A stretch of DNA of 64,000 bases from Pseudosulfitobacter pseudonitzschiae (GTDB taxonomy: Bacteria > Pseudomonadota > Alphaproteobacteria > Rhodobacterales > Rhodobacteraceae), in the NCBI RefSeq assembly GCF_900129395.1, contig NZ_FQVP01000005.1:124001-188000 (forward strand), in the 5' to 3' direction. Below the pieces are notes generated by a model. It had not been told where the DNA came from. It made no database searches and saw only the letters and a program-made list of their open reading frames with translations. This document shows, piece by piece, positions 2,100-20,236 of this stretch; the stretch's first letter is position 1; every line of letters begins with the position of its first letter. Both the position numbers and the translations under genes were made by a program.

Positions 2100-3875
2100 T
2101 CAGATGTCCGGGGCGCCATTGAGGCCATCAGTCAGGCCGCCCAGCAGATCGCTGCCATCCGTCAGGCTGTCCAGCGTGCCGCCCAGCAGGTCGCCGCCGC
2201 CGAGCAGGCCACCGACCAGGCCATCGTCACCGGTCAGGCCATCCAGCAGGTCGCCACCGCCAAGGACATCACCCAAAGGTCCGTCCTCGCCCAGCAGCCC
2301 GTCCAGCAAGCCGCCCGCAGTGCCGTCTTCGCCAGTGCTGTCACCCAGCAGGCCAGTGTCGAGCAGTTCACCGACCAGGCCTTGGTCGCCTGTCACGTCG
2401 GCCAGAAGACCGTCGTTCCCGACAACATCACCCAGCAGGCCGTCCGAGCCGGTCACGTCGCCCAGCACTCCGGAATTGCCGGTGACATCACCCAGCAGGC
2501 CCTCATCGGCGATGACCGGGTCCAGAATGCCCCGTTCGGGTGCAAGCCCGCCTGTCAGCCCTTCGAGCGTGCCGGACAAGCCGTCCTCGCCGCCCAGCAG
2601 GCCGCCAGTGAGGCCGCCCAACAGGTCGCCTTCGCCGCCGAGCAGCCCACCGACCAGGCCATCTTCGCCGACGATACCATCCAGCAGATCGCCACCGCCC
2701 AGAACATCACCCAAAGGACCGTCCTCGCCGATCAGTCCGCCAAGCAGGTCGCTGTCACCCAGCAAACCACCCAGCAGGCCGTCTTCTCCGGTCAGGCCAT
2801 CAAGCAGCCCGCCTGTCCCGTCTCCGCCTGTGCCGTCACCCAGCAGGCCGGTGCCGGTCAGATCACCGACCAGTCCGTCGTTGCCGCTTACGTCACCCAG
2901 CGATCCGGTGTTGCCGACAAGATCACCCAGCAGCCCGTCAGAGCCGGTGATATCGCCCAAGATACCATTGTTGCCGGTGATATCGCCCAGCAGGCCGGTG
3001 TCCGAGACGATCCCGTCAAGAATACCGGTTTCTCCATCGACGCCATCGCCAAGCACCGGTTGTCCCAGCAGGTCCTCGGTAAGATCACCAAGCGGCGAGT
3101 CCTCACCCACCAGGTCACCGAGCAGGCCGTCAGACCCCGTCACGTCACCCAGCAGCCCATCGTTTCCGGTCAGGTCCCCGAGGAGCCCGTCATCAGAGAT
3201 GATGGGGTCCAAGAGGCCTTGGGTGTCGGTATCCGTCGGATCGGTGGGATCTGTTGGGTCCGTCGGATCTGTTGGGTCGGTTGGGTCGGTTGGGTCAGTC
3301 GGATCTGTTGGGTCGGTTGGGTCAGTCGGATCCGTTGGATCTGTTGGGTCAGTCGGATCCGTTGGATCTGTTGGGTCCGTCGGATCTGTTGGATCTGTGG
3401 GGTCCGTTGGATCTGTGGGGTCCGTTGGATCTGTCGGATCGGTTGGATCTGTTGGGTCCGTCGGATCTGTTGGATCTGTTGGGTCCGTCGGATCGGTCGG
3501 GTCCGTCGGATCAGTTGGGTCCGTCGGATCAGTTGGATCAGTTGGGTCCGTCGGATCAACAGGGTCGTCGTCACCACCACCTGCTGCGCCAAGCAGTCCC
3601 AGGCCTCCGACCACGGCAGCCGCGATTACGCCGGCATCATCCATGGTGCCGCCTACGCCCGCTTCACCGGCAATCTCGGTGCCGTCAGCCATCACCAGGC
3701 TGTGCAGCGAACCATCCGCGGTGGGCACATAGTAATCGAGGACAGTGATTACATCGCCATTCTTGAGCGTGATGAACAGGTCATCGCCCTTGCGGGCATA
3801 GTTGGCAACGTCTGCTTGGTTGGCATCGATTTTGATACCAATTTCCGCGCCGGCCTGGATGGTTGTGTTTGCCAT
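2100..3875 (-). CDS. Acidic BapA-prefix repeat protein with DPT stalk (putative type I-secreted adhesin)
   Basis: A 591-residue, strongly acidic protein. Residues 1-60 form a BapA/LapF-type prefix domain (VANYARKGDDLFITLKNGD then ITVLDYY). Residues 80-100 are a Gly/Ala-rich hydrophobic stretch ending in GGGDDD. Residues 107-213 are about 36 Asp-Pro-Thr triplets. The rest consists of Gly/Asp/Leu repeats of about 10 residues (type GLLGDVTGSD), grouped into three longer blocks that each open with LLDP- or ILD-. No RTX nonapeptides (GGxGxDxxx) are seen. The start at 3875 has AGGAG seven bases upstream. In related adhesins the prefix domain marks cell-surface proteins exported by type I systems; such a system is encoded at 11963-16591. 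Export and adhesion are inference. Large open frames on the other strand are artefacts of the repeats. Confidence 0.8.
   Translation of the reverse strand: MANTTIQAGAEIGIKIDANQADVANYARKGDDLFITLKNGDVITVLDYYVPTADGSLHSLVMADGTEIAGEAGVGGTMDDAGVIAAAVVGGLGLLGAAGGGDDDPVDPTDPTDPTDPTDPTDPTDPTDPTDPTDPTDPTDPTDPTDPTDPTDPTDPTDPTDPTDPTDPTDPTDPTDPTDPTDPTDPTDPTDPTDPTDPTDPTDPTDPTDPTDPTDTDTQGLLDPIISDDGLLGDLTGNDGLLGDVTGSDGLLGDLVGEDSPLGDLTEDLLGQPVLGDGVDGETGILDGIVSDTGLLGDITGNNGILGDITGSDGLLGDLVGNTGSLGDVSGNDGLVGDLTGTGLLGDGTGGDGTGGLLDGLTGEDGLLGGLLGDSDLLGGLIGEDGPLGDVLGGGDLLDGIVGEDGLVGGLLGGEGDLLGGLTGGLLGGEDGLSGTLEGLTGGLAPERGILDPVIADEGLLGDVTGNSGVLGDVTGSDGLLGDVVGNDGLLADVTGDQGLVGELLDTGLLGDSTGEDGTAGGLLDGLLGEDGPLGDVLGGGDLLDGLTGDDGLVGGLLGGGDLLGGTLDSLTDGSDLLGGLTDGLNGAPDI
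3236..3557 (-). repeat. 9-bp minisatellite encoding about 36 Asp-Pro-Thr triplets
   Basis: A tandem array of an imperfect 9-base unit (GGATCTGTT / GGGTCCGTC on the plus strand) within the 591-residue surface protein. Every unit keeps the reading frame, so gain or loss of units would lengthen or shorten the stalk without disrupting the gene. Third-base variation among units shows the array is not a very recent duplication. Confidence 0.9.
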
Positions 3876-4112: not shown

Positions 4113-4142
4113 GCTATTGGCTAAGAATTGGAAATTGTCTGT

Positions 4143-6134
4143 TCACACCCCGTCCAGCGTCGATGTGAGGCAGGAAAGCAGACCATCGTCCCCGGTCAGC
4201 CCGCCCAACAGGTCACCGCCAAGCAGGCCGCCCGTCAGCCCCCCAAGCAAGCCGCCCGATGTGCCATCTTCGCCGGTACCATCGCCCAGCAGGCCGGTGC
4301 CGGTCAGATCGCCAACCAGGCCTTCATCGCCTGTCACGTCGGCCAGAAGACCATCGTTCCCGACGACATCACCCAGCAAGCCATCCGAGCCTGTCACATC
4401 ACCCAGGATGCCGTGGTTGCCGGTGACGTCACCCAACAGGCCCTCATCGGCGATGACCGGGTCCAGCAAGCCATCTTCGGCTCCGAGTGTGTCCAGCAGC
4501 CCGCCAGTCAGGCCGCCGAGCAGATCGTCTTCACCACCCAGCAAGCCGCCGGTCAGACCGCCGAGCAGATCGTCCTCACCACCGAGCAAGCCGCCGGTCA
4601 GACCGCCGAGCAGATCGTCCTCACCACCGAGCAAGCCGCCGGTCAAACCGCCGAGCAGACCGTCCTCGCCACCCAGCAAACCGCCGGTCAGTCCACCCAA
4701 CAGGTCGTCCTCGCCACCCAGCAAGCCACCGGTCAGCCCGCCGAGCAGACCGTCCTCACCACCGAGCAGGCCACCAGTCAGACCGTCGAGCAGACCATCC
4801 TCGCCACCAAGCAAGCCACCGGTCAGCCCGCCCAACAGGTCGCCTTCACCGCCAAGCAATCCGCCGGTCAACCCGTCGAGCAAGCCGCCCGCCAGTCCGT
4901 CTTCACCGGAGCCATCGCCCAGAAGGCCAACACCTGTCAGATCGCCGACCAAGCCATCTGCGCCTGTCACGTCGCCCAGCAGGCCGTCGTCGCCGATCAG
5001 ATCACCGGCCAGACCATCCGAACCTGTGATGTCGCCCAGAATGCCCGAGTTGCCAGTGATGTCGCCCAGCAGCCCGCCATCGGCAACCAGCGGATCAAGG
5101 AGGCCGGTGTCTGCACCAAGCCCGCCCAGCAAGCCTTCGACCGTGCCCGACAGGCCACCCAGCAAGCCGTCGTCGCCGCCCAGGACGCCATCCAGAAGGC
5201 CGCCGCCGCTGCCCAGAAGTCCGCCAACGACACCGTCTTCGCCGAGCAAGCCACCGACAATGCCTTCATCGCCGAGAATCCCATCGGTCAGCCCGGTGCT
5301 GCCCAGCAGGCCGCCCACGACACCCTGATCGCCCAGAACACCGTCAAGAACACCTTCGACAGTTTCCAGAACGCCGTCCACAGCGCTGCCTTCTCCCAGC
5401 AGGCCATCGGTCAGGCCAGTGCTGCCGAGCACGCCACCCAGCAGGCCATCCTCGGACACCAGGCCTCCGGTCAGGCTGCCCGAACCATCGCTGTCACCCA
5501 GCAGGCCAGTGCCCAACAGGCCACTGACCAAACCATCTGAACCAGTCACATCCCCCAACAGCCCGTCTTCGCCGACGAGTTGGCCCAAAAGACCGTCCGA
5601 GCCTGTCACCGCGCCCAAAAGCCCGTCGTTGCCAGTCAGATCGCCCAGCAAGCCTTCGTCTGCCAGAACGGGGTCAAGCAGTCCCTCGACGGCTGGTTCC
5701 GTTGGATCGGTCGGCTCTGTGGGGTCAGTCGGTTCCGTGGGGTCAGTCGGCTCTGTGGGATCAGTAGGCTCCGTCGGCTCGGTTGGGTCCGTCGGCTCTG
5801 TGGGATCGTCATCGCCACCATTGGCGGCCACCAGGCCGGTTGCGAGAGCGGCGAGACCTGCGCCGATTTCTTCCATATTCATGCCAAGGCCTGCGACTTC
5901 TTCGGTTTCGTCTGCAATCCCTTCGACACCACTGAAGCTTCCGTCAGAGAACATCAGCTTGTGTGCTGCGCCACCGGCTGCGCGATCGTAGAAATCAGTG
6001 ACCGTGATGCTTTGGCCATTGGTCAGTTCGACAACCAGATTGTCCCCGGATTTTACGTAGCGAGCGACGTCAGCCTTTGTGGCGGGTATGGTTACGTTCG
6101 CTGCCGCCCCAGCTTGGATTTTTGTGGTAGCCAT
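4143..6134 (-). CDS. Acidic BapA-prefix repeat protein with DPT/EPT stalk (putative type I-secreted adhesin)
   Basis: A 663-residue paralogue of the 591-residue protein downstream. Residues 1-55 form the prefix domain (VARYVKSGDNLVVELTNGQ then ITVTDFYD). A hydrophobic Gly/Ala stretch at 90-105 ends in NGGDDD. A short stalk of alternating DPT/EPT triplets covers about residues 111-148. The rest is Gly/Asp/Leu repeats: three LLDP-headed superblocks (starting near 5675, 5095 and 4465 in DNA) and a run of about eight 15-residue units of type LTGGLLGGEDGLLGG between the second and third. The protein ends in DGV, with one Cys near the C-terminus and no RTX motifs. The start at 6134 has GAGGA nine bases upstream. 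A strong terminator follows. Export by the type I system at 11963-16591 is inferred from locus and domain type. Confidence 0.8.
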   Translation of the reverse strand: MATTKIQAGAAANVTIPATKADVARYVKSGDNLVVELTNGQSITVTDFYDRAAGGAAHKLMFSDGSFSGVEGIADETEEVAGLGMNMEEIGAGLAALATGLVAANGGDDDPTEPTDPTEPTEPTDPTEPTDPTEPTDPTEPTDPTEPAVEGLLDPVLADEGLLGDLTGNDGLLGAVTGSDGLLGQLVGEDGLLGDVTGSDGLVSGLLGTGLLGDSDGSGSLTGGLVSEDGLLGGVLGSTGLTDGLLGEGSAVDGVLETVEGVLDGVLGDQGVVGGLLGSTGLTDGILGDEGIVGGLLGEDGVVGGLLGSGGGLLDGVLGGDDGLLGGLSGTVEGLLGGLGADTGLLDPLVADGGLLGDITGNSGILGDITGSDGLAGDLIGDDGLLGDVTGADGLVGDLTGVGLLGDGSGEDGLAGGLLDGLTGGLLGGEGDLLGGLTGGLLGGEDGLLDGLTGGLLGGEDGLLGGLTGGLLGGEDDLLGGLTGGLLGGEDGLLGGLTGGLLGGEDDLLGGLTGGLLGGEDDLLGGLTGGLLGGEDDLLGGLTGGLLDTLGAEDGLLDPVIADEGLLGDVTGNHGILGDVTGSDGLLGDVVGNDGLLADVTGDEGLVGDLTGTGLLGDGTGEDGTSGGLLGGLTGGLLGGDLLGGLTGDDGLLSCLTSTLDGV

Positions 6135-6427
6135 CTCAACATCCTCTGTGCGGAAGATCGCACTATCTAAAGTTTGTGTTTACATACTTAATAGAACAAA
6201 CACATACTAAAGTTGCAGTCAATACGACTCACGTGTTGAGGGCGCCGCTTTTGCAGAATGTGGCACCCGATTGTTTTCTAACCATATAATAATGGCGCTC
6301 CGTGGTGCCGTAGTTGACAGGCGGGAGATTGGAATACAGGGTTTTATATAAGGAAAATACCCTCTTAAGGTGTATTCAGACCTGAAAATGTGTGCGTTCG
6401 GGAAACGATCCGAACTGGGAGAGCGCA
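6135..6427. promoter_or_regulatory. Divergent promoter region with three copies of the 11-bp element
   Basis: This 293-base AT-rich gap separates the divergent repeat-protein gene (start 6134) and hybrid kinase gene (start 6428). It contains CTAAAGTTTGT (6167-6177), ACATACTTAAT (6182-6192) and ACATACTAAAG (6202-6212); the last two are 20 bases apart in the same orientation. A looser match (CTTAAGGTGTAT, 6364-6375) lies close to the kinase start. A TTGACA hexamer is present at 6314-6319 but no well-spaced -10 was found. No coding sequence is credible here. Confidence 0.5.
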
Positions 6428-8383
6428 ATGACACGAAAAGCAGATCTTTCGAAAGACGCGACCGCGGTACGGCCCGTTCTTCAGGCTATTGCGCGTCTGA
6501 TCTCGACAGACCGGCGCGCTGTGATTCTCGCAACGGACAAGGCCGAGGTGTTGTTGTCCAACGCCCCCGCCACACGGGTCGGGATGGACACCGAAGGGTT
6601 GAGCGCGGCATTTGACTGGCCAGCTTTGTGTGCACGTGCCCGTCGCGCAGGCAGCATCGCGGTTTCAAAAAACTTTCGGAACACCGAGCTTGAGGGCGAG
6701 CTGGTTTATGTGCCCCTGGGGGCAGCGGACAGTTTCATGCTGCGTTTGGCCGAGACGGACCAGGAGGCGGCGGTGTTGCGCAACCGCACCCGCACGGCGA
6801 CGCTGCTTCGTGTCTCGCATGACCTCAGAACCCCGATCCAATCCTTGCTGGCCGCAACCGACGCAATGCTGAATTCGAAAGATACCGGCACCGCCGATAC
6901 GCGCCGTGACCAAATGCAGCGGTCGGCGCAACTGGCGCTGAGCCATATCGACAATGTCATCAAGGTGATCCGGGGCGAACTGACAACTGCCGAAATCCAG
7001 TCGGACGAGGATTTCAGCCTCGCGGAAGAGGTGCGGGCGACATTGGATATGATCCGGCCCATTGCGGGCACACGCGGCACCTCAGTGGCGTTGACGATTG
7101 ATCCGCCCGCCGAGGAACGGGTGAACGGTCCGGTGCGGTTTGTCAGGGCGCTGTTGCAGAACATGTTCGACAATTCGGTCAAACATGGCGGGACAAAGGT
7201 CGAGGTGCGCGTCACCAGCGAAAGTGCTGCGGAAACGGCCGCCAATCGAAACATCATGGTCGAAGTGAGCGATCTGGGCGGGGGGCTGCCCGACGCACAA
7301 AAGGCACGGCTGATGCGTGCCATTGATCTGGCGGACATCTCACTGGCGCGGCAGTCCGGCGCGGCAACCGGACCGGCAGAGGGGCGGCCATCTGCAGGGC
7401 TGAACGTGCTGGCCTATGCATTGAGCCAGCTTGGCGGGACGCTGGAAGTGTTCGACCGCGGCGAGGACGGAGAAGCGATTGCAGAAGGTTCGACTGCCAA
7501 GGTGGCGGGCACGATCCTGCGGGCGCGGTTCGATCTGGCGGTGGCAGAGGCGGCCGCGCATCCGGCTACGACACCGCACCCTGTCGCTGTCGACAGCCAG
7601 CTTTTGCGCGGCATTGGCGTGCTGGTGGTCGAGGACAGTCCCTCCAGCCGCGATTGGGTCGTCCATTGTCTGCGCGCTGCGGGTGCCCAGGTGGTGGCGG
7701 TTGAAAACGGCCTGCGTGCACTGGAGACGCTTCAAGGTCCCGATGCGGTTGAAAACATCGACTTGCTGCTGACCGATATGACTTTGCCCTACATCAACGG
7801 TCTCGAACTGGTGCAGCGGCTTATCGCACAGCAAACTTCGGGTGCGCTGGCCTGGCGCGGCAAGATCCTGGGCCTTTCTGCCCATATAGATGATGACCTG
7901 CGGAAGGCCTGCCTGAAGCTGGGGATGGCGCAACTGCTGGAAAAGCCCATCCGAAGCGTGGACCTGTGCCGTTCGGTTCAGGATGTGGTGCGCGCGTCGT
8001 CCTGCGATATCGCGCCCTTGCCGGATCAGAAGGCAGCGGGCGGTGCGGATTGTTCGCGCGCGGACCCGTTGGCCGAAAGCATGGTCAAAGAGCTTGTCGC
8101 ACAGCTGGGTCTGGACACCGCACGCGGCTTTATGCTGCGGGCGCGATCCGAAGCGCAGGCGGTGTTCGAAGATATCCTGCATCAGGGCATGCATGCAGAC
8201 ACGGGCCGTATGCTGCATGCGGCGACAGGTGCGTGTGGACTGACAGGGCTGAAGCTGTTGGAGCGCAGTTTGCGCGAACTGGAAATTCTGGCAAAGGCGT
8301 CAAAACCGATTTCCGAGAGGCAACTTGGCGATCTGAAGGCGACGCTGGCCGCAACCGGGAGGGCGATTGAACACTTGGGCTGA
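6428..8383 (+). CDS. Soluble hybrid histidine kinase with receiver and Hpt domains
   Basis: A 651-residue protein without membrane segments, so it should sense in the cytoplasm. An N-terminal region of about 115 residues has no clear family. Then come a HisKA domain with His131 (SHDLRTP), an HATPase domain (N-box FDNSVKHG, G-box DLGGGLPDA), a receiver domain near residues 393-520 with phospho-acceptor Asp450 (LTDMTLP) and Lys in EKPI, and a C-terminal helical domain with HAATGACGL (His597) resembling an Hpt phosphotransfer site. This is a complete phosphorelay in one chain. The start at 6428 follows GGGAGAG; ATG at 6392 is less likely. A LuxR-type response regulator follows 168 bases downstream on the same strand and is the likely final acceptor. 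Confidence 0.85.
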   Translation: MTRKADLSKDATAVRPVLQAIARLISTDRRAVILATDKAEVLLSNAPATRVGMDTEGLSAAFDWPALCARARRAGSIAVSKNFRNTELEGELVYVPLGAADSFMLRLAETDQEAAVLRNRTRTATLLRVSHDLRTPIQSLLAATDAMLNSKDTGTADTRRDQMQRSAQLALSHIDNVIKVIRGELTTAEIQSDEDFSLAEEVRATLDMIRPIAGTRGTSVALTIDPPAEERVNGPVRFVRALLQNMFDNSVKHGGTKVEVRVTSESAAETAANRNIMVEVSDLGGGLPDAQKARLMRAIDLADISLARQSGAATGPAEGRPSAGLNVLAYALSQLGGTLEVFDRGEDGEAIAEGSTAKVAGTILRARFDLAVAEAAAHPATTPHPVAVDSQLLRGIGVLVVEDSPSSRDWVVHCLRAAGAQVVAVENGLRALETLQGPDAVENIDLLLTDMTLPYINGLELVQRLIAQQTSGALAWRGKILGLSAHIDDDLRKACLKLGMAQLLEKPIRSVDLCRSVQDVVRASSCDIAPLPDQKAAGGADCSRADPLAESMVKELVAQLGLDTARGFMLRARSEAQAVFEDILHQGMHADTGRMLHAATGACGLTGLKLLERSLRELEILAKASKPISERQLGDLKATLAATGRAIEHLG

Positions 8384-9301: not shown

Positions 9302-10552
9302 ATGGGGATCGGGCGATTGACCAAACCGGTGATTGTGTTCGTGGGCGCCGTTTATCCGGGCCAGTTCGGGCGGTTGTGTGATTACCTGCGCGAAACAGGC
9401 ATGGCCGACAGCTATTTCTTGACCACGCCGGGCCATATGGAACGCAATCGCGCGCGCGGGGCGCATATCCTTGGGTTCAAGCCGGACGGCAATATCGTTG
9501 GCGCGCAAAGCTATTATTATACGTCCAAGTTGGAACGATCTGCACGGATTTCACGCGGGGTGCTTTCGGCGCTGACCGCGTTTCAGAAGCGCCGCAAGAT
9601 CGACGTGGTTGTGTGCCATTCATTATGGGGCGCGCCGCATTTTCTGTACGATGAAATTGACGCGGCCATTGTCAGCTATATCGAATTTCCCAGTTTTCGC
9701 GCCCATGGCTGGGACCCGGCCTATCCGCCGGACCAGTCCCAGCGGATGACCGATCGCAACGCCGAGATGCTGAATTTCCATCAGGCACTGCGCAGCGATC
9801 TGGTGATCTGTCCCAGCCGCCATGCCAAGCAGATGTTTCCCAAGGCTTTGCAATCGAATATCGAGGTGCAGATGGAAGGGTTCGACTTTGCCGCGATGCC
9901 CGAGGCCGAAGTTGCGACCGAACCACGACCGTTCACCATCGGTTTCGCATCGCGCGATTTGTCCTCGGCCAAGGGGTTTGAGACATTCATGCGCATCACT
10001 GACAAGCTGGTGGGGCAGGGTGTGGATGCCCGTTTTGTGGCCTTTGGCGGTGCGGGTGTGGCGACCTATGGCTACGAAGAGCAGGCCGTGCAGCGGCTGC
10101 ATGACGGCAAGGTCAAGAATTTCCGCGATCATTTACTGCTTAAATACCCCCGCGCAGCATCAGCCGTCGAATTTCCGGGAAAGCTGCCATATGACGAATT
10201 TTCCAAACGCGTCGCCGAAGTTGATCTGTTCCACTACCCGCTGCAATTCGGCGTGGCGAACTGGGGACTGGTCGAGATCCTGGGCCGTGGCGGCTGTGTG
10301 CTGGCGCCCGACCGTGGCTATGCCGCCGAACTGATTCAGGACGACATCAACGGCCAGCTTCTGCCCGATGACGATGATGCCTGGATTGCCGCGACATTGG
10401 CGTTAAAGGACGATCCGTCCCGGCGGCTGCGGTATGGTCAGGCGGCTAGCGCGATGGCGCGCGCGCAATATGATCTGTCAGCGGTCGCGCCGCGTTACAT
10501 GGGGCTGTTCAGGCAGGCGATGCTGAACCGCGCAGCGCGGGCTGCGGGCTAA
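9302..10552 (+). CDS. GT-B fold glycosyltransferase (GT4-like)
   Basis: A 416-residue protein with the two-domain layout of GT-B glycosyltransferases. The N-terminal half contains VIVFVGAVYPGQFGRL; the C-terminal half has the GT4-type donor region, with IGFASRDLSSAKGFETF, FHYPLQFGVANWGLVEILG (an E in the position of the EX7E motif) and a terminal helix region typical of the family. The ATG at 9302 was preferred to TTG at 9272. A partial copy of the locus element (CCTAAGTATGG, 9247-9257) lies upstream. The gene is convergent with the Omp85 gene and overlaps its end by 4 bases. The location suggests it could glycosylate a surface protein or build a surface glycan, but acceptor and sugar are unknown. 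Confidence 0.75.
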   Translation: MGIGRLTKPVIVFVGAVYPGQFGRLCDYLRETGMADSYFLTTPGHMERNRARGAHILGFKPDGNIVGAQSYYYTSKLERSARISRGVLSALTAFQKRRKIDVVVCHSLWGAPHFLYDEIDAAIVSYIEFPSFRAHGWDPAYPPDQSQRMTDRNAEMLNFHQALRSDLVICPSRHAKQMFPKALQSNIEVQMEGFDFAAMPEAEVATEPRPFTIGFASRDLSSAKGFETFMRITDKLVGQGVDARFVAFGGAGVATYGYEEQAVQRLHDGKVKNFRDHLLLKYPRAASAVEFPGKLPYDEFSKRVAEVDLFHYPLQFGVANWGLVEILGRGGCVLAPDRGYAAELIQDDINGQLLPDDDDAWIAATLALKDDPSRRLRYGQAASAMARAQYDLSAVAPRYMGLFRQAMLNRAARAAG

Positions 10553-11913
10553 AAACGCGTGCTCAGGCTTAGCCCAAAGACCTGATGTTCATCGCCGGGC
10601 TGGTCCTCGATGGGCGTGGCCACGTAAAGCGAAACGGGGGTGTTGCCCACGTCAAAGACAACGGACAGGCCGACACTGCTGCGCCGGTGCAGGCTGTCGT
10701 CGATGGTGCCGCCAAGTGTGTCATCCAGATCCCAGCTTGCGCCGCTGTCGACAAAGATGCCTGCACGGAACGGAGTGCGATAAATCTCGCCAAAGTCGCG
10801 TTGCAGTTCGATCGAGACTTTGGCGTAGGTGTTGCCCCCCAGCGCGTCGTTGCCGTCACGCGGGCCGATGCCGCGCGGGGCAAAGCCGCGAAAGGTGTCT
10901 GCACCGGGATAAAACCGGTCGATGGCGCGGGTGGCATTGCCGCTGGTGCCGTTGATGTTCCCGGCGTCAAAGCCGAAGAGCAATCGCAGATTGGAGGCCA
11001 GCGGAAATTGCATGCGCGTCTCAAGGCGCGTGTCCGAGATCGGGTCGTCCGTGCCGATGTTCCAAAAATACTGGTCCAGCCGGATGCGATAGCCGAACCG
11101 ATCCCAATCTTCCTGTCCATCCTGCGCCTCTGCGGTGCGTTCGTGACGCAGGCCCAGCCGTACATAAGGCGCCGAAATGCCGTCGGTCTGTTCTTGCAAA
11201 AGCAGGGCGCTGGCGGTTGGTTCCACATCATACAGCCGGTGGTCGCGGTAGCCGATCCCGGCTTCCAGCTTTGTCGAAGGGGACAGCGCCCAGCCCAGAT
11301 AGGTCTCGATCCGCAGGGATTCGTGGGTGTAGCTGCGGTCGTCATAATCGTCGCGCCCGCCTGCCAACTCAAAGCCGAGGTCGAAATCCGTCTCGAACGC
11401 TTCGGTGCGGTACAGGTTCAGGCTGTAGCGTTGCACCTCTTCGCCGTACTCAAGGTTGACCGCGCCATAGGTCCGGTCGAACAGGTTGTAGCGTTCATAA
11501 GACAGGCTGCCCACGACGCCGTCCTGGGACGCATAGGCCAGCGTTGCATCAATGCGGCCGGGGCGGGTGTCCAGTTCCTGTACGTCGATGACCAATGTGT
11601 CGCCTTCACGTGACAGGGCCACCGTTTCGAAAACGCCCGTGGACATAAGACAGTCTTCAATCGCGCGCAGCTCAAGGTCGATGTATTCGACGCCCTCTTC
11701 GGCGCCGCAGGTTGCCTTGATGTCTTGTTCGGGAATGAACTGCGCCCCACGCACTTCGACGGTGTTGACCATTTGCGACTGGACAGGTGTCGCGGTGGCC
11801 AGGGCGAGACCGAAAGCCCCCGTTGTGAGCAGGGTTTTGGTGAAATCCAAAGTGCCGTGGCAGCCGGCAAAGTGCAGTTGTGGCAAGGGGCAGTCTCTTT
11901 CTTGATCTTTCAT
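10549..11913 (-). CDS. Omp85/BamA-like outer-membrane barrel with a single POTRA domain
   Basis: About 454 residues. A signal peptide precedes a cleavage site near TATPVQSQ, then one POTRA-like domain (VNTVEVRGAQFIPEQDI, TGVFETVAL, LVIDVQE), then a barrel of repeated amphipathic strands ending in Phe (SLSTRF). FRGFAPRGIGP matches the conserved VRGF/L6 region of Omp85 proteins. Two Cys in the POTRA (KATCGAEE and IEDCLMS) could form a disulfide. It is too short for BamA (five POTRAs) and lacks the two POTRAs of usual TpsB proteins. It is the last gene of the type I secretion operon, 49 bases after the adaptor gene, so a role in exporting or inserting the acidic repeat proteins is plausible but unproven. 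Confidence 0.75.
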   Translation of the reverse strand: MKDQERDCPLPQLHFAGCHGTLDFTKTLLTTGAFGLALATATPVQSQMVNTVEVRGAQFIPEQDIKATCGAEEGVEYIDLELRAIEDCLMSTGVFETVALSREGDTLVIDVQELDTRPGRIDATLAYASQDGVVGSLSYERYNLFDRTYGAVNLEYGEEVQRYSLNLYRTEAFETDFDLGFELAGGRDDYDDRSYTHESLRIETYLGWALSPSTKLEAGIGYRDHRLYDVEPTASALLLQEQTDGISAPYVRLGLRHERTAEAQDGQEDWDRFGYRIRLDQYFWNIGTDDPISDTRLETRMQFPLASNLRLLFGFDAGNINGTSGNATRAIDRFYPGADTFRGFAPRGIGPRDGNDALGGNTYAKVSIELQRDFGEIYRTPFRAGIFVDSGASWDLDDTLGGTIDDSLHRRSSVGLSVVFDVGNTPVSLYVATPIEDQPGDEHQVFGLSLSTRF

Positions 11914-11962
11914 CACCGCAAGCAAGCAGGTCAGCAGCGACCCGCCACAGGATTGGAGGTTA

Positions 11963-13135
11963 TTATTGTAGCCGCGCTTTGAGAAGGGGGCGGGTGAGAT
12001 AGCTGAGGACGGACCGTTTGCCGCTTTCGATGTCGACCTGGGCAATCATGCCGGGACGGATCGCGAACTCTTCGCCGCCGCGCTCCAGATAGCTGCGTTC
12101 GGTCTTGACCATGACGCGGTAGAAATCCTGCGGACCCTGGGGCGTGTCCTCTTCGACGGTGTCTTCCGAGATTTGGATGACGGTGCCGCGCAGGTCGCCG
12201 TAAGTGGCAAAGTCATAGGCGGTGATCTTGACACTGGCGGGCATGCCGGGCGCGATAAAAGCCACGTCGCGCGGTTGCACCTTGGTTTCGATGATCAACT
12301 GGTCATCCGTGGGCGTGATTTCCATGATCGGTTCGCCGGGCTGGACAACACCGCCAAGCGTGGTGATGTCGATGTTGTTGACACGCCCGGCCACGGGCGA
12401 GCGGATTTCGGTCCGTTGGAATTCGTCCTCTTTCTGGATCAGATCCTGCTGGATCATCAGCAGCTTGGCCCGGCGCTGCGCCAGATCCTTGTAGGAATCC
12501 TGCACATAGACGTTGCGTGTTTCACTGATCTTGCCGTCAATCTCGGCCTTTTTCTGTTCCAGTTGCAACAGGTTGATCTTGCTGACCGAACCGGAGGCTG
12601 TCAGCGGACGGGTGATGTCGATCTGCTCCTGAATGGCGGTCTGTTCTGCCTCCAGCGCCGACAGGGACGCCTCAAGCTTGGTGCGCCGGGCAGTGAACAG
12701 GCGCAGTTCCGTCTGCTCGGCGGCGTTCGGCTCGGGGCCAAAGTCCAGCTCGGGCTTTTCCAGCACCTCCGCCTGCAGGCGGGCCACTTCGGCAGTCAGC
12801 GCGGTGATCTCGGATTGTGCGGACAAAAAGGCCGATTGCGACCGGGTGGGGTCGAGGCGGGCCAGAACCTGGCCTTCTTCGACGATGTCGCCTTCGCTGA
12901 CTGCAAGCTCGGACAGGATGCCGCCTTCAAGGCTTTGGATGGTCTGCATCCGCCGCAAGGGGATTACGCGTCCATCGCCGCGTGTGATTTCGTTGATCTG
13001 TGCAAGGGCGGCCCAAGTAACGCCAATGATCAGCGCCAGAATAATGGTTTGAATGGTCAGCCGCGCCACCCGCAGCGTTTGGCGTCGGTAACTGCCATCC
13101 ATATGGCTGGATGTCATGGCATCCGCGTTGCTCAT
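11963..13135 (-). CDS. HlyD/LapC-family type I secretion adaptor (membrane fusion protein)
   Basis: A 390-residue periplasmic adaptor. One transmembrane helix lies near residues 26-46. Then comes the HlyD signature region (QTIQSLEGGILSELAVSEGD and GQVLARLDP), a long coiled-coil section rich in Gln and Glu (about 110-230), and the barrel-sandwich second half (IRSPVAGRVNNI, GGVVQPGEPIMEI). It links the inner-membrane ABC transporter to the TolC channel. Its ATG overlaps the stop of the transporter gene by 4 bases (ATGA), showing translational coupling. Confidence 0.92.
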   Translation of the reverse strand: MSNADAMTSSHMDGSYRRQTLRVARLTIQTIILALIIGVTWAALAQINEITRGDGRVIPLRRMQTIQSLEGGILSELAVSEGDIVEEGQVLARLDPTRSQSAFLSAQSEITALTAEVARLQAEVLEKPELDFGPEPNAAEQTELRLFTARRTKLEASLSALEAEQTAIQEQIDITRPLTASGSVSKINLLQLEQKKAEIDGKISETRNVYVQDSYKDLAQRRAKLLMIQQDLIQKEDEFQRTEIRSPVAGRVNNIDITTLGGVVQPGEPIMEITPTDDQLIIETKVQPRDVAFIAPGMPASVKITAYDFATYGDLRGTVIQISEDTVEEDTPQGPQDFYRVMVKTERSYLERGGEEFAIRPGMIAQVDIESGKRSVLSYLTRPLLKARLQ

Positions 13136-15267
13136 GTGACGGCTTGGACTGGTCGGGTTTTAACCGAATTGGCGCGCGCCGAATTCAGGATCTGCATCAG
13201 GTCGCCGTCCCGCGCCACGCGCCCGTCTTTCAGAACGATGGCCCGTTCGGTCAGGGCGAGCAATTCGCGCTTGTGGGTCGAGATGACCGTGGTGCGCCCT
13301 TCCAGCCAGTCCTTCATGTGGCTGATAACCTTGCTTTCGGTGATGTGGTCAAAAGCGGCGGTGGGTTCGTCCAGCAAAACCACCTTGGGATCTTGCAACA
13401 GCACCCGCGCGAGGCCGATCGACTGGCGCTGGCCGCCTGACACGTTGGCGTTGCCTTGCAGTTGCAGGTCCAACCCGCGCACGTGGCGCCGCACGAATGT
13501 GCCAAGTCCGACAGCATCCAGCGCCTCGAGCAATTCGTCATCGCTGTGCAGGCCGTGGTCCAACAGAAGGTTGTCGCGCAATGTGCCTTGGAACAGTGCA
13601 ACGCTCTGCGGCAAATAGCCGATCTGCCGACGCCGGTCGATGGGGTCGATCTGGGACAGCGACAGGCTGTCGATCAACACGCTGCCCGATTGCGGATCGG
13701 TCAGCCCGGCCATCAGGCGCAGCAGGGTGGATTTGCCCGCGCCGTTGCCACCCAGCAATGCGATGCGTTCTCCTGCTCCGATGGACAGGTCGGGGATCGA
13801 GATCACGGGCGGGGCTTCGGGATCGTGGCGGAACACCACGTCGTCAATCTTGTAGTTGCCCGAGAGGGAGGAGGCGCGCACGAAATGACGGTCCACGGGG
13901 CGCTCGACGGGCAGGGCCATGATCTCGTCCAGCCCTTCCATCGCGGCGCGCACCTGCTGCCAGCGCGCCAGCAGGCCCGCGACCTGACCCATGGGGGACA
14001 TGGTGCGGCTGGACAGCAGCGTGCAGGCGATCAGGCTGCCGACGGTCAGCTCGCCCGCGCTGATCAGATAGACACCGGCGATGATGACACCGGCATAGGC
14101 CAGCTTCTGAACCGTGCTGACCAGTTGCGTCATGATGTTGGTGATGCTGCGCGTCTTGATCGCGGTCGTCGCCATGGTCGCCGACAGTTGGGCGTGGGCG
14201 CGCTGCAACCGGCCTTCTGCGCGCGATGCCTTAACGGTTTCAAGGTTCGAGATGGTTTCCAGCAGCAACCCGTTCAGCGCCGCCGCCTCGCGGGTGTTTT
14301 CACGCGATGCACGGGCCAGTTTCTTTTGCATCAGGATGCCGGGCAGGATCGTGGCGATCACCCCTGCCAGCACCACAAAGGCGATATTGCCGCCGATGAA
14401 CCAGATCACGCCGACAAAGATCAGCACGAAGGGCAGGTCGCAGATGGCCGTGACGGTGCCAGAGGTAAAGAACTCTCGCACAGTCGCGAAATCACGAACC
14501 TGGTTGGCAAAGACGCCTGTGGACGCGGGCTGATGCTTCAGCCGCATGTTGGCAACTTTATCAAAGAGTTGCGCAGACAACCTCAAGTCGAGATCGCGGC
14601 CCGAAACGTCCACCAAAGTCGACCGCATCAACCGCAGGACCAGTTCAAGGATGATCGCAATGCCGACACCGCTGGCCAGAATCCACAGCGTGTCAAAGGC
14701 GTTGCTGGGCACCACACGGTCATAGACCTGCATCGAGAAAAGGGCCGTCGCCACCGCCAGGATGTTCGCAGCAAAGGAGGCCAGAACCACATCGCGGTAG
14801 ATCACCCAGTTGCCCAGCACAGGCCCCAGGATCCAGTGGCGTTTGTCCTTGCTTGGCGCGTCCAGCCGGTCAGATACGATGTCGATGGGCTTGGACACCA
14901 GAATGCGCCCGTCGTGCACGGCTTCGAGCTCGGCGCGCGACCACATGCAGCGGCCGCCACCAGCTTCGGGAACGATCACCTTGGCGTGGGTTTTGGTCAG
15001 GCTTTCCAGAATGACCGTCCGTCCGTTCTTCAGGAACAACAGGGCAGGCAGGCCGTGATCGGGAAAATCTTCGATGGATTCGTGGCTGATCCGGCAGCTC
15101 ATATTGACGCGGCGCAAGGCCAGTGTCGCAAGGCTCTCACCCGCGGCGCCATCCTTGGCCTTGGGCAGCCCGTCTATCAGCTGACTGGACGACGTCGCAA
15201 CACCCTGTACGCGGCACAGTTCGACAAGGCCTTCGATAAGCGGGTCTGAGGATGATGCATTTTTCAT
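13132..15267 (-). CDS. LapB/HlyB-like type I secretion ABC transporter
   Basis: A 711-residue ABC exporter. Residues 1-130 resemble a C39 peptidase-like domain; no catalytic Cys-His arrangement is evident, so it is probably a substrate-docking domain rather than a protease. A six-helix membrane domain follows (about 150-430). The nucleotide-binding domain has Walker A GGNGAGKST, signature VSGGQRQ, Walker B VVLLDEPTAAFD and the switch His in STHKRE. This layout fits exporters of RTX and LapA-type adhesins. Together with the neighbouring TolC and HlyD genes it forms a complete type I system whose most obvious substrates are the acidic proteins encoded in the same locus. Confidence 0.92.
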   Translation of the reverse strand: MKNASSSDPLIEGLVELCRVQGVATSSSQLIDGLPKAKDGAAGESLATLALRRVNMSCRISHESIEDFPDHGLPALLFLKNGRTVILESLTKTHAKVIVPEAGGGRCMWSRAELEAVHDGRILVSKPIDIVSDRLDAPSKDKRHWILGPVLGNWVIYRDVVLASFAANILAVATALFSMQVYDRVVPSNAFDTLWILASGVGIAIILELVLRLMRSTLVDVSGRDLDLRLSAQLFDKVANMRLKHQPASTGVFANQVRDFATVREFFTSGTVTAICDLPFVLIFVGVIWFIGGNIAFVVLAGVIATILPGILMQKKLARASRENTREAAALNGLLLETISNLETVKASRAEGRLQRAHAQLSATMATTAIKTRSITNIMTQLVSTVQKLAYAGVIIAGVYLISAGELTVGSLIACTLLSSRTMSPMGQVAGLLARWQQVRAAMEGLDEIMALPVERPVDRHFVRASSLSGNYKIDDVVFRHDPEAPPVISIPDLSIGAGERIALLGGNGAGKSTLLRLMAGLTDPQSGSVLIDSLSLSQIDPIDRRRQIGYLPQSVALFQGTLRDNLLLDHGLHSDDELLEALDAVGLGTFVRRHVRGLDLQLQGNANVSGGQRQSIGLARVLLQDPKVVLLDEPTAAFDHITESKVISHMKDWLEGRTTVISTHKRELLALTERAIVLKDGRVARDGDLMQILNSARANSVKTRPVQAVT

Positions 15268-15298: not shown

Positions 15299-16591
15299 CT
15301 ATTGCGTGTGTGAAGCGGAAATGATCAGCGTGCCCAGCACACCCAGATCATGCGCCGCGCGGTATTCGGTGCGTTTGCGTTCGTCGTATGTGTCGATCTT
15401 GTCGATTTGCGAGTCGTAAAGGTCACGGCCGGTTGTCAGCAGGTCCAGCAGCTCGCGCTGACCGCCGATAAACTGTTGTTCATAGTTGTCCAAAACCCGT
15501 TGCGCTTCGGCCAACTGCTGCGCTCTGGAGTTTTCCGTCGTGCGCAGAATGTTGATTTGCTGACGGGCGCTCGAAGCGGTGTTGGTCAGGTCGCGTTCAA
15601 CCGAAACCAGGGTGGATTTGGCCGCTTGCAAGTTCAGCTCGGCGGATTGCACGCCGCGTTTGCCAAACCCGCTCGAACTGAGATCGACCCCCGTGGAGAT
15701 GCCGATTGCGGTGCGGCTTCGGCCACCATTCAGGTCGGCGCGGCCCTGGGCCTGCAGCTTGATGGTGGGTAGGCGCGCGGCCTTGGCGGTTTGTACACCT
15801 GCGGCGGCCTCATCGGCCGAGGCGCGCGCAGCGATATAACTGGGCGCGATATGGACCGCAGACCGCACCTTTGCCGCCTGGGCATAGCGGCTGGCAAAGC
15901 CCAGTTCTGGCGGATACTGGATGCCTGAAACCGGTTGCCCTACCAGAAATTCGATTTGCGACAGGGCAATGCGGCGGTTTGCGACCAACTGTGCCATCTG
16001 GTCCTCGGCACGTGCGATCTCAAGCCGGGCGCGTGCCACCTCGCCATTGTCACTGATGCCAGCGGTGGCGCGGTCCTGTGCCTGCCCCGAAATCCTGCGC
16101 GCAAAGGTGGTGTAGGCTTGGGTGCGGGCGATTTTGAGATCGATGGTTTCGATATCGATAAAGAATTCCGCCACCTGCAGCGACAGGCCCTCCACCTCCA
16201 TTTTCAGATCGGAAACAGCCTGAACGCGCACATGCGATGCCGCGTTGATCTTGCTGCGGATCAGGCCCCAGTCGTACAGCACCTGTGACACGGTCAGTGT
16301 GATGCCGGCCCCGTTCGAATCCGTGGTCGAGCTGTCGCCGGACAGGCTGATGCTGGGATAGTATTCATCACGCGCAGCCTGAATGTCGATCGAACGGCTC
16401 GCCACTGTCTGCCGAAGTGCTGCCACATTTCCATCACGTTCGGTTGCACGCAAAACGGCCGCTTCTAACGACATTTGCGCAGCGGCGGGCAGTGACATGG
16501 CCACCGTAAAAAGCGCAGCGGCCAGCGGTGCCAACCGGATGCCGGGGCGCTGCATGCGCCTGTTTTGCTTGGGCCGTGTCAGCACGATCAT
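15299..16591 (-). CDS. TolC/LapE-family outer-membrane channel of the type I system
   Basis: A 430-residue protein with a signal peptide (cleavage after SLPAAAQ) and the two-fold repeated coiled-coil architecture of outer-membrane efflux proteins. Recognisable family stretches include SLEAAVLRATERDGNV at the start of the mature chain, LSLSGD-like early barrel sequence, VSQVLYDWG, and the second half with AEAQRVLDNYEQQFIGGQR. The ATG at 16591 overlaps the TGA of the preceding gene by one base (TGATG). The next gene, the ABC transporter, begins 31 bases downstream. It completes the export path across the outer membrane. Confidence 0.9.
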   Translation of the reverse strand: MIVLTRPKQNRRMQRPGIRLAPLAAALFTVAMSLPAAAQMSLEAAVLRATERDGNVAALRQTVASRSIDIQAARDEYYPSISLSGDSSTTDSNGAGITLTVSQVLYDWGLIRSKINAASHVRVQAVSDLKMEVEGLSLQVAEFFIDIETIDLKIARTQAYTTFARRISGQAQDRATAGISDNGEVARARLEIARAEDQMAQLVANRRIALSQIEFLVGQPVSGIQYPPELGFASRYAQAAKVRSAVHIAPSYIAARASADEAAAGVQTAKAARLPTIKLQAQGRADLNGGRSRTAIGISTGVDLSSSGFGKRGVQSAELNLQAAKSTLVSVERDLTNTASSARQQINILRTTENSRAQQLAEAQRVLDNYEQQFIGGQRELLDLLTTGRDLYDSQIDKIDTYDERKRTEYRAAHDLGVLGTLIISASHTQ

Positions 16592-17367
16592 CAAGTGATC
16601 TCCGTCATCAATTCAGTGAACAGTCCATCTTGCGCCTCGGGAATGTACAGCAAGCTCGGGTCTGGCGAATCTGATACTAAAAAACCTGAAGTTTCTGGCA
16701 ATTCAGTGGCATTTTCACCGCTAAATTCTGAAGAAGCTGCTTCTGCATCCTCGGAAGGAGGCGTATCTGCCGCCTCGGGGTCGAAGTCCGATGGTTCCAA
16801 GATCATATCCTCTGGACCCGTCAGTTCCTCGATGGCTGTCGCCAGATCGGTCTGGGTATCAGGCTGAGTGTTCTGTGCGACTGGGGCGGGCGTGTTTTCA
16901 TCGTCAGACAAGTAGGCGATGCCGCTGCCCAGCGAGAAACCGGCGCCTGCAAACAGTGCCGTGTCGCCCCAATCTCCCGCGCCGCCTGCGTCCGCACTTT
17001 CGATGTCGGAAGAACCCGAACTGACCGGGGTCACGCCCTCGGTCGTCTGCATGGCTTCGGTAAATTCGGTGTCCTGCGCCAGATCAGGCTCGGGCGCCAT
17101 AAGTCCGGTCACAACAGGGGAGCCATCGGCTGACAACAAGCGACTGAAATCGCCGTTTGGCCCGATGACAAAGAAGTTTTCAATGTTCAGGGTTTCGCCG
17201 TTTGACAGGCGCACAACCAGATCCTGCCCTGATTTCTCAGTGCCCAAAATGGACGCGCTGACGGACACATCCGTGGGTTCGCTCAGGATGCGCCGGGACA
17301 TCACAGGTGCCGCGAGCGCTTGTGCCGCGTCCTTTGCCTGTGTGGTTACTCCAACGGTCACTGCCAT
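16591..17367 (-). CDS. Short BapA-prefix protein co-transcribed with type I secretion genes
   Basis: A 258-residue acidic protein. Residues 45-68 carry the same prefix-type motif as the long repeat proteins (SGQDLVVRLSNGETL then NIENFFV). A hydrophobic Gly/Ala-rich stretch near 133-150 (ALFAGAGFSLGSGIAYL) leads into an Asp/Glu/Pro/Thr-rich tail without tandem repeats. The start at 17367 gives the most protein-like N-terminus; the open frame extends to 17418. It is the first gene of the secretion operon and its stop overlaps the tolC-like start. Having prefix and hydrophobic segments but no repeats, it might be a minor surface component or an accessory for the other prefix proteins. The function is not known. 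Confidence 0.7.
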   Translation of the reverse strand: MAVTVGVTTQAKDAAQALAAPVMSRRILSEPTDVSVSASILGTEKSGQDLVVRLSNGETLNIENFFVIGPNGDFSRLLSADGSPVVTGLMAPEPDLAQDTEFTEAMQTTEGVTPVSSGSSDIESADAGGAGDWGDTALFAGAGFSLGSGIAYLSDDENTPAPVAQNTQPDTQTDLATAIEELTGPEDMILEPSDFDPEAADTPPSEDAEAASSEFSGENATELPETSGFLVSDSPDPSLLYIPEAQDGLFTELMTEIT

Positions 17368-17677: not shown

Positions 17678-20236
17678 TTAGACAGAGTCGGAATCTGTTG
17701 AGTTGCCGAAGACACTATCCAGAAGCGTTGTTCCGGCATCGTCGACCTGACTGAAGAGTGTGTTCATCGCGTCTTCAATTGCGTCGTCTGCCAGCAAGCC
17801 GCTTTCGAACGAAGATGCGTCGTCGCCGGTTGTCTCGGCGTTCAACAAGTCGTCGAATGTATTGTGCTCTCCAAGGACGTCCTCGACGCCGCCGGCAAGA
17901 ATGTCGTTCAGCAAGCCGTCGATCTCGGGGTCCGCAGCGTCACCGCTTTCAGCGGGCGCCGGTTCGAACAGGCCTTGGTCAACAAGCGTGCCGGTCAGGC
18001 TGGCATCACCGCTCAGACCCGCAAAGAGATCATCGGCAGTAAGATCTGTATCAACCACGTCCAGGCCAAAGATGTCCTCTTCACCTAGCAGGCCGTCAAA
18101 AATAGACGCCTCGGAGGCATCCGCGCTCGCGCCTCCAAAGCCTGGAAGGAACGCAAGGCTGTCGCCTCCGATCAGCGTATCAAGAAATCCGTCGTCGCCA
18201 GTCAACAACCCGTCTTCGCCGGTCACATCGTCCAGAAGGCTAGGGATGATGCTGGTCACGTCCTCGACGACAGTCTCAACCGGGGCCGTTACGGTTTCCA
18301 GAAGGTCCTCGGTTGTCTCGATGACGGTCTCTGCCGGGGCCGTTACGGTTTCCAGAAGGTCTTCGGTTGACTCGACGGCGGTGTCCACCGGAGCCGTTAC
18401 GGTTTCCAACACGTCCTCGGTTGTCTCGACGACAGTGTCCACCGGAGCAGTTACAGTCTCCAGAAGATCTTCGGTTGTCTCGACGACGGTCTCGACCGGA
18501 GCCGTTACGGTTTCCAGAAGCTCCTCGGTTGTCTCGACGACGGTCTCTGCCGGAGCCGTTACGGTTTCCAGAAGGTCCTCGGTTGTCTCGACGACGGTCT
18601 CGACCGGAGCCGTTACGGTTTCCAGAAGGTCCTCGGTTGTATCAACGACGGTCTCTACCGGAGCTGTTACGGTTTCCAGAAGGTCCTCGGTTGTCTCGAC
18701 GACGGTGTCCACCGGAGCCGTCACGGTTTCCAGAAGGTCCTCGGTTGTCTCGACAACGGTCTCGACCGGAGCCGTTACGGTTTCCAAGAGGTCTTCGGTT
18801 GTCTCGACGACGGTGTCCACTGGCGCCGTTACGGTTTCCAAAACGTCCTCGGCTGTCTCGACGACAGTCTCCACCGTATCGGTCACGGTTTCGACAACTT
18901 GTTCCGTGGTCCCGACCACAGTTTCAACCGTGTCTGTCACCGTATCTGTTAGGGGCTCGATGCTGTCCACGACAGTAGAGAGCGGATCGTCCAGAACATC
19001 CGAGGATTCGCTCTCCGTGATGCCGCCAAGAAGTCCGCCGACCAGCCCATCCGTGCCAAGCAAGCCACCGACAATACCGTCTTCTCCGAGGATGGTATCA
19101 ACCAAACCATCTTCACCCAGCAGCGTGTCCACAACGTCATCGACAACGCCGTCCTCGCCGAGCACGGTGCCGACAACGCCGTCATCGCCCAGAACCGTAT
19201 CCACGACCGTATCGACAACACCGTCATCGCCGAGCACGATATCGACAACACCGTCTTCCCCCAGAATGGTGTCCACCACGTCATCGACAACGCCATCATC
19301 GCCGAGCAGGGTATCGACAACACCGTCTTCACCCAGAAGGGTGTCCACAACGTCATCTACAACGCCGTCATCACCAAGAACGGTATCCAGAACACCGTCC
19401 TCGCCCAACAGGGAGTCCACGACAGTATCAACGACACCGTCCTCGCCCAGCAGTGTGTCCACGACCGTGTCGACGACGCCGTCTTCGCCGAGCAGTGTGT
19501 CCACGACCGTATCGACGACACCGTCCTCGCCCAGCAGGCTGTCCACGACCGTATCGACGACACCGTCCTCGCCCAGCAGGCTGTCCACGACTGAATCAAC
19601 GACGCCATCTTCCCCCAGAAGGCTGTCGACGATACCGTCTTCACCGCCAATCAGGTTGGTCACCGGGGCCAGTGGCGTGCTTGAGGTCGGGGTGCCTGTC
19701 GAAGTTGGGGGCTTCTGGGCCGTTGTTGTCTGCGGTGTGGCAGAGGTATCTTCGCCCGGTTTCAAGGACTCCTTGAAATAGGGTTGATCGTCTTGCGAGC
19801 CATGCAAGGGGGCCGCGCCCAGGCTGGCCATCTTTGGCTCGGCGGGTGCGTCAATGCTGTTGCTGTCAGGTGTGGCTTCGACGGAGACATCCAGAGCCGC
19901 CACGTCAAATGCCTGTGCCGCAGCGCTGGCCGTGTCTTGCTCGGGATCTGCAAGGGTCTGATCCTGCGCGGCGGGGGTGTGATCGCCAGCTTTGGTATCT
20001 TGCGGGTGCGTGTCGCGGTCGGGAAGCGTTTCGGCAAATGCCTGCAATCCATCAGGCGAGCCGCTTTGCAGGGCAAGGCCCATTCCGATCGCGGTTGCCG
20101 TCGCCGAAACACCGCTCGCGCGTCCGCCACGGTCTTCTGCACTCTGGAGAGGGCGGCCAGGCAAACTCAGACCGTTGGCTTGATCGCCAAGCGTCTGACG
20201 CACCTGGGTGCCGCTGAGATTTCCACGCTTGCCCAC
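17678..20236 (-). CDS. Acidic protein of 14- and 18-residue tandem repeats, unknown function
   Basis: An 852-residue, very acidic protein. Residues 1-190 are low-complexity (Ala, Asp, Gln, Thr, Pro). Next come about 15 imperfect units of LLGEDGVVDTVVDS (residues about 195-400). A bridge follows, then 11 copies of the 18-residue unit TEDLLETVTAPVETVVET (about 455-655). The C-terminal 200 residues are acidic with scattered LLGEDG-like motifs. No prefix domain, RTX motif or signal peptide is visible. The start is GTG at 20236, supported by GGAG nine bases upstream and by the absence of an in-frame ATG. It lies upstream of the secretion operon but is separated from it by its own gap. The 18-residue units have a helix-like heptad character; secretion is inferred from context only. 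Confidence 0.75.
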   Translation of the reverse strand: MGKRGNLSGTQVRQTLGDQANGLSLPGRPLQSAEDRGGRASGVSATATAIGMGLALQSGSPDGLQAFAETLPDRDTHPQDTKAGDHTPAAQDQTLADPEQDTASAAAQAFDVAALDVSVEATPDSNSIDAPAEPKMASLGAAPLHGSQDDQPYFKESLKPGEDTSATPQTTTAQKPPTSTGTPTSSTPLAPVTNLIGGEDGIVDSLLGEDGVVDSVVDSLLGEDGVVDTVVDSLLGEDGVVDTVVDTLLGEDGVVDTVVDTLLGEDGVVDTVVDSLLGEDGVLDTVLGDDGVVDDVVDTLLGEDGVVDTLLGDDGVVDDVVDTILGEDGVVDIVLGDDGVVDTVVDTVLGDDGVVGTVLGEDGVVDDVVDTLLGEDGLVDTILGEDGIVGGLLGTDGLVGGLLGGITESESSDVLDDPLSTVVDSIEPLTDTVTDTVETVVGTTEQVVETVTDTVETVVETAEDVLETVTAPVDTVVETTEDLLETVTAPVETVVETTEDLLETVTAPVDTVVETTEDLLETVTAPVETVVDTTEDLLETVTAPVETVVETTEDLLETVTAPAETVVETTEELLETVTAPVETVVETTEDLLETVTAPVDTVVETTEDVLETVTAPVDTAVESTEDLLETVTAPAETVIETTEDLLETVTAPVETVVEDVTSIIPSLLDDVTGEDGLLTGDDGFLDTLIGGDSLAFLPGFGGASADASEASIFDGLLGEEDIFGLDVVDTDLTADDLFAGLSGDASLTGTLVDQGLFEPAPAESGDAADPEIDGLLNDILAGGVEDVLGEHNTFDDLLNAETTGDDASSFESGLLADDAIEDAMNTLFSQVDDAGTTLLDSVFGNSTDSDSV
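18262..18870 (-). repeat. 54-bp tandem repeat (11 copies of an 18-residue unit)
   Basis: Eleven near-identical 54-base units encode TEDLLETVTAPVETVVET with small substitutions (VET/VDT/AET). The high nucleotide identity between units suggests recent duplication or gene conversion and makes copy-number variation between strains likely. Ends are approximate. Confidence 0.85.
19040..19640 (-). repeat. Repeat array encoding LLGEDGVVDTVVDS-type units
   Basis: About 15 imperfect units of 30 or 42 bases encode LLGEDGVVDTVVDS or its shortened form LGDDGVVDT. Units are less uniform than the 54-base array downstream. The motif DG-(V/L)(V/L) preceded by LLGE links it to the DGLLGD repeats of the two prefix proteins. 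Ends are approximate. Confidence 0.8.

What the first reader, a model, noticed from the sequence alone, without database searches (positions are those of the whole stretch)
16591..17367. Repeat-free prefix-domain protein as first gene of the secretion operon
It keeps the prefix motif and hydrophobic segment of the large adhesin-like proteins but has only an acidic Pro/Thr tail. Its stop overlaps the tolC-like start, so it is made in step with the exporter. It could be a retention plug, periplasmic adaptor or priming substrate rather than an adhesin.
Basis: inference. Interest (0 to 1): 0.6.

Follow-up and report, generated by a model that had tools for sequence, protein, structure and literature searches.

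The report
Repeat-free mini-BapA protein beside TolC
A small, conserved protein made together with a bacterial secretion channel looks like a giant surface adhesin with its repeats removed; it is probably a short cargo of the same channel, but its job is unproven and several lineages do without it.

Summary
The ORF is real: 16591-17367(-), 258 aa, ATG at 17367; its TGA shares one base with the tolC ATG. It has a BapA prefix domain (PF22783, E 9.5e-8, above gathering score), a weakly hydrophobic Gly-rich segment and an acidic tail with 0 Lys/Arg in 164 residues. The prefixes of the window's large proteins are true homologues (hhalign 98%). It is a conserved gene, not debris: of 29 informative rhodobacteral exporter loci found with HlyD alone, 21 have a short prefix ORF at this spot and 8 do not; on the exporter tree that takes at least 3 changes, most simply losses. 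Where some other bacteria keep a giant bapA directly before tolC, this gene takes that place, and its prefix groups with canonical BapA prefixes rather than with the local large substrates. Best reading: a repeat-less "mini-BapA", a short type I cargo whose folded prefix leaves last and probably stays at the exporter. An essential adaptor or plug is unlikely, because lineages without it keep exporter and substrates; no LapG match was found in the genome and no LapA-type retention model matched. The papers searched describe no such protein. New variant of a known kind; moderate interest.

The parts
16591..17367 (-). small prefix protein ('mini-BapA'), 258 aa, with stop
17098..17352 (-). predicted beta prefix domain, residues about 6-90 (PF22783 match at residues 38-90)
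   Evidence: AlphaFold2, mean pLDDT 80-91 for residues 21-90; Pfam
16906..16962 (-). Gly-rich, weakly hydrophobic segment, residues 136-154
   Evidence: G141 and G143 are nearly invariant in 28 relatives
16594..17085 (-). acidic tail without Lys, Arg or Cys, residues 95-258 (contains the Gly-rich segment)
16591..16593 (-). stop codon whose last base is the first base of the tolC ATG
15299..16591 (-). TolC-like outer membrane protein of the exporter
   Evidence: Pfam OEP E 2.9e-38
13132..15267 (-). type I ABC transporter, LssB subfamily
   Evidence: TIGR03375, 801 bits, over cut-off
11963..13135 (-). HlyD-type periplasmic adaptor
   Evidence: TIGR01843, over cut-off
10549..11955 (-). Omp85-superfamily outer membrane protein (start not settled)
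   Evidence: Pfam Omp85 E 1.2e-28
17678..20236 (-). upstream acidic repeat protein without BapA prefix, putative cargo (start not settled)
2100..3875 (-). large repeat protein with BapA prefix, putative cargo
   Evidence: PF22783 E 2.9e-11
4143..6134 (-). large repeat protein with BapA prefix, putative cargo
   Evidence: PF22783 E 2.1e-10

Best explanation
It is a repeat-less member of the BapA prefix family ('mini-BapA') that holds the bapA position of a bapABCD-like type I secretion operon. Shown: a conserved prefix under purifying selection, a Gly-rich segment, an acidic tail very poor in Lys, Arg and Cys, start-stop overlap with tolC, and absence from several lineages that keep the exporter. 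Inferred: the tail leaves C-terminus first through ABC-HlyD-TolC; the folded prefix comes last and is held at the exporter or envelope, so that a short acidic tail sits in or just outside the channel. It would be one more, minor cargo of the exporter.
For: Short prefix ORF (211-380 aa) before tolC in 21 of 29 informative rhodobacteral loci found with HlyD alone. Same place as giant bapA in L063, L073, L084 and L092, and the same N-terminal layout, prefix then Gly-rich hydrophobic stretch. Prefix tree joins small and canonical BapA prefixes against the large rhodobacteral ones, support 100/100. Tails of 30 small proteins: Lys+Arg 1.14%, against 6.4% in their own prefixes, 12.5/10.5/12.5% in TolC/ABC/HlyD and 0.07% in the bodies of 31 large cargo proteins. 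dN/dS against L006: prefix 0.005/0.197, tail 0.059/0.226. Hydrophobic motif in the last 22 residues of 22 of 30, against 406 of 3986 internal windows of the same tails. The last 30 residues are more alike than the middle in 12 of 14 pairs, not independent.
Against: Export was not tested. The C-terminal motif is not specific: TolC and HlyD ends match it in 60 of 60, and no recognised type I C-terminal domain was matched. The small tails hold more Lys+Arg (1.14%, up to 5.6%) than the large bodies (0.07%). That the prefix stays at the exporter is taken from LapA-type cargo, and no retention-module model matched.
Confidence: 0.5

Rival explanations
1. Pore plug or gatekeeper: the prefix stays periplasmic and the tail fills TolC when no large cargo is in transit, or it helps to hold the large proteins on the cell.
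For: Start-stop overlap with tolC in 21 of 30; a compact predicted prefix followed by a long disordered tail; no LapG match in the own genome, so another way of retention would be needed.
Against: 8 of 29 informative loci do without it and keep exporter and cargo; no contact with TolC was tested.
Confidence: 0.2
2. Cytoplasmic helper or regulator: the prefix guides the large cargo to the exporter or tunes expression.
For: No signal peptide was noticed by eye in the N-terminus; homology with the cargo prefixes would allow mimicry.
Against: The cargo-like tail has no evident use in the cytoplasm; the gene is absent from lineages that keep the cargo.
Confidence: 0.12
3. Remnant of an old bapA kept mainly as a translational leader of tolC.
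For: bapA position and start-stop overlap; a reduced, divergent copy in Shimia (L026) beside a lineage without it.
Against: The prefix is constrained about as strongly as tolC, and its sequence is kept across the group.
Confidence: 0.1
4. Prefix in trans: it lends its prefix to the prefix-less upstream repeat protein.
For: The two genes are neighbours, and the upstream protein keeps a Gly-rich hydrophobic motif but has no prefix.
Against: All 8 loci without the small gene keep the prefix-less upstream protein; in L020, L042, L045, L046 and L048 the upstream protein has a prefix of its own and the small gene is still there.
Confidence: 0.05

Closest known systems
BapA-type adhesins (PF22783 / NF033677 prefix) of bapABCD operons
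   Same: Prefix domain, Gly-rich hydrophobic stretch after it, gene directly before tolC of a type I exporter
   Different: No repeat array and no recognised C-terminal domain; 258 aa instead of some 1500-7000
LapA-type adhesins with N-terminal retention module and LapG/LapD control
   Same: N-terminal beta domain followed by an unstructured stretch; type I exporter with an LssB-type ABC transporter (LapA side from passages of PMC13090378)
   Different: No retention-module model among the matches of 28 members, no LapG match in the own genome, no repeats
SiiA/SiiB, accessory proteins of the Salmonella SiiE exporter
   Same: Extra proteins of an adhesin exporter that bear on retention (passages of PMC6272769)
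   Different: SiiAB are described there as an inner membrane proton channel; the resemblance is of possible role only and is not shown here

Membership tests
BapA_N domain family (PF22783 / NF033677) | Prefix sequence above the curated score | tested here: met
   Pfam 32.2 bits, gathering 27; NCBIfam 30.3 bits, below its cut-off of 35; 27 of 28 family members match both models, at E<=1 for NCBIfam and E<=0.1 for Pfam
BapA-type giant adhesin | Repeat array after the prefix | tested here: not met
   258 aa, no repeat domain matched
BapA-type giant adhesin | Gene directly before tolC of a type I operon | tested here: met
   same place as giant bapA in L063, L073, L084, L092
LapA-type retention system | N-terminal retention-module sequence | tested here: not met
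   No LapA retention-module model among NCBIfam matches of 28 members at E<=1; that NCBIfam holds such a model is recalled, not checked
LapA-type retention system | Retention-module fold | tested here: inconclusive
   Foldseek: no match at E<=0.001; second look: best Z 4.8, unrelated enzymes and RTX blocks
LapA-type retention system | LapG protease in the genome | tested here: not met
   PF06035: 0 matches at E<=0.001 in the own genome; the control rang in Caulobacter
LapA-type retention system | LapD receptor in the genome | tested here: inconclusive
   PF16448: no match, but no control rang either
Type I secretion substrate | Acidic, Cys-free, Lys/Arg-poor body (recalled as typical, matched to the large cargo here) | tested here: met
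   0 Lys/Arg, 37 Asp/Glu in 164 residues, no Cys; 30 tails compared
Type I secretion substrate | C-terminal secretion signal | tested here: inconclusive
   Motif in 22 of 30 ends, but also in 60 of 60 TolC and HlyD ends
Type I secretion substrate | Export that depends on the ABC transporter | not testable with these tools
   needs a deletion mutant and cell fractionation

The most novel reading that the evidence does not exclude
A dedicated, non-proteolytic plug: a repeat-less BapA made in step with TolC stays lodged in the channel by its prefix, closing idle exporters or competing with the large cargo for retention sites, in genomes without LapG.
Probability: 0.15. Interest if true: 0.7.

Novelty: new variant of a known kind. 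Interest (0 to 1): 0.42.

Why it matters
How BapA-type cargo stays on cells without LapG is, as far as I know (recalled), open. A natural protein made of little more than the prefix, present in some lineages and absent in near relatives, is a ready minimal construct to ask whether the prefix alone holds a protein at its exporter. It also warns that a BapA-prefix annotation need not mean a giant adhesin.

Tried and rejected
Recent truncation or decay of a local large substrate: rejected, because the small prefixes lie with canonical BapA and not with the large rhodobacteral ones and the prefix is constrained. One clade of all small prefixes apart from canonical BapA is neither shown nor rejected (p-AU 0.234).

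Small gene moved elsewhere in the genomes without it: not found. In the 8 genomes the alignment search gave no match (1 genome) or large-type or cut frames (7); the two short frames, L105 and L111, are starts of large-type proteins cut by the end of the stretch. Completeness of these genomes is not told.

Stand-alone prefixes elsewhere: in a draw over the phylum 27 of 398 genomes have BapA_N, nearly all in frames over 400 aa (PF22783 is weak on the small type, it did not list the G051 copy). In the family of Billgrantia 33 of 201; of its short frames I read L169 and L175 as broken long adhesins, others were cut or left unresolved. Two stand out: 325 aa directly before tolC in Halomonas sp. Y3 (L052), and a 132-aa partial copy of its own bapA prefix in Billgrantia (L060, 91% over 101 residues).

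Known fold: nothing convincing in the PDB by Foldseek, its second look, or sequence profile. [TAP]AAG, the LapG-type cleavage motif: absent from the window protein, present in 7 of 30 relatives, not followed up. Promoter and terminator scan: empty. Papers: 7 searches listed none whose title or visible abstract describes a stand-alone BapA-prefix protein; most were seen as listings only.

Full report
What is there. The ORF 16591-17367(-) encodes 258 residues. Its TGA and the tolC ATG share base 16591. Downstream follow ABC (13132-15267), HlyD (11963-13135) and an Omp85-type protein. On the other strand lie a glycosyltransferase, a LuxR-type response regulator and a hybrid kinase; then, back on the minus strand, two large BapA-prefix proteins. 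The own genome has four BapA_N matches at E<=0.001, all on this contig: these two, one about 8 kb left of the window, and the small one.

Organism. The same cluster lies on Pseudosulfitobacter plasmids. Two genomes given as same genus have matching contigs of exactly the lengths of these two plasmids (292917 and 246683). The window is therefore from Pseudosulfitobacter or something very near.

The protein. Residues about 6-90 are a predicted beta domain (mean pLDDT 80-91 for residues 21-90); the rest is mostly low-confidence, likely disordered. The prefix of a large window protein is predicted with a similar order of strands, without the small protein's two N-terminal strands. The two prefix families are homologous by profile comparison (98.2%, E 4.1e-14). 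Small ones bear a DFFVIGPxGxFSRLL...VTGLxAPEP signature, large ones mostly DFYxPAxxGxxHRL.

How general it is. Of these I treat 30 as the rhodobacteral type (L022-L050, L064; HlyD at 60-83% identity). 21 have a short prefix ORF (211-380 aa) just before tolC, 8 do not, and L039 is cut by the contig end. The window and the eight plasmid loci L014-L021 all have it, but those plasmids were found with the small protein itself, so they are outside that count; with them the totals are 30 of 39, 8 absent, 1 unknown. Several loci are near copies (L016/L017, L018/L028/L031, L020/L042, L021/L033), so counts are not independent. On a quick tree of joined ABC and HlyD proteins (39 loci, 5 outgroups) presence changes at least 3 times, and the deepest rhodobacteral branches have the gene. 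L039 was scored absent there although it is undetermined; it groups with two true absences. Such counts cannot tell gain from loss; loss is my reading. In the family draw only 5 of 394 genomes have the small family at E<=1e-15 (at most six candidates scored per genome), and 7 of 147 nearer relatives, the own genome included, have a match at E<=0.001 (the two in G031 were not examined). The locus is patchy and often on plasmids.

Relation to bapA. In Novosphingobium (L063, L073), Brevundimonas (L084) and Stenotrophomonas (L092) a giant prefix ORF ends 3 bases inside the longest tolC frame; a Gly-rich hydrophobic stretch follows its prefix. Among all 50 other loci, 8 have a prefix ORF in the fetched stretch, so this layout was seen only where bapA was in reach. 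The rhodobacteral small gene has the same place and the same N-terminal layout, with the repeats replaced by about 100 residues. The prefix tree splits small plus canonical BapA prefixes from the large rhodobacteral ones with 100/100. It rests on 98 columns, is midpoint-rooted, and an N-terminal stretch missing from the large proteins may add to the split.

Composition and selection. Tails of 30 small proteins: Lys+Arg 1.14%, Asp+Glu 20.3%, 1 Cys in 5546 residues. Bodies of 31 large cargo proteins: Lys+Arg 0.07% (the L048 ORF and three frames of 400 aa or less were left out). Small prefixes 6.4%, TolC 12.5%, ABC 10.5%, HlyD 12.5%. Against the orthologue L006 (92% identical): prefix dN 0.005/dS 0.197, tail 0.059/0.226, tolC 0.008/0.180. 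A C-terminal hydrophobic motif is enriched over internal windows (22 of 30 against 406 of 3986) but is not specific, since TolC and HlyD ends have it in 60 of 60.

Mechanism. The cargo-like tail argues that the protein enters the exporter; repeated absence argues that it is not needed for export or for keeping the large cargo. By analogy with LapA-type cargo, whose N-terminal module remains in the periplasm (PMC13090378, passages seen), the prefix would be the part that stays. That is inference: no retention-module match, no LapG match.

Prior knowledge. Papers seen as passages only: PMC13090378, PMC12153261, PMC8277102, PMC6272769; the passages shown treat no stand-alone prefix protein. The six papers holding 'BapA prefix-like domain' were seen as a listing only.

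Noticed in passing
window 17678-20236(-): Upstream acidic repeat protein without BapA prefix; a G-[VI]-S...AIGMGLA-x-QS-like motif near its N-terminus recurs in 21 of the 39 loci scanned for it (pattern search), also where the small gene is absent. Putative second kind of cargo.
   Followed up: partly
window 10549-11955(-): An Omp85-type protein follows HlyD in 6 of 7 annotated plasmid loci; its role beside a type I exporter is unexplained.
   Followed up: no
L050 (also G007:C27): A contig filed under Enemella evansiae (Actinomycetota) carries this rhodobacteral locus; probably a mixed or mislabelled assembly.
   Followed up: no
L020 and L014: The exporter lies inside tad pilus genes in Thioclava pTElox9 and close to tad genes in Pseudosulfitobacter SMR1.
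   Followed up: no
L060 5862-6260(+); L052 5509-6486(+): Stand-alone BapA prefixes before tolC in two Halomonadaceae: a 132-aa partial copy of the local bapA prefix, and a 325-aa protein. They may be independent inventions of the same arrangement.
   Followed up: partly
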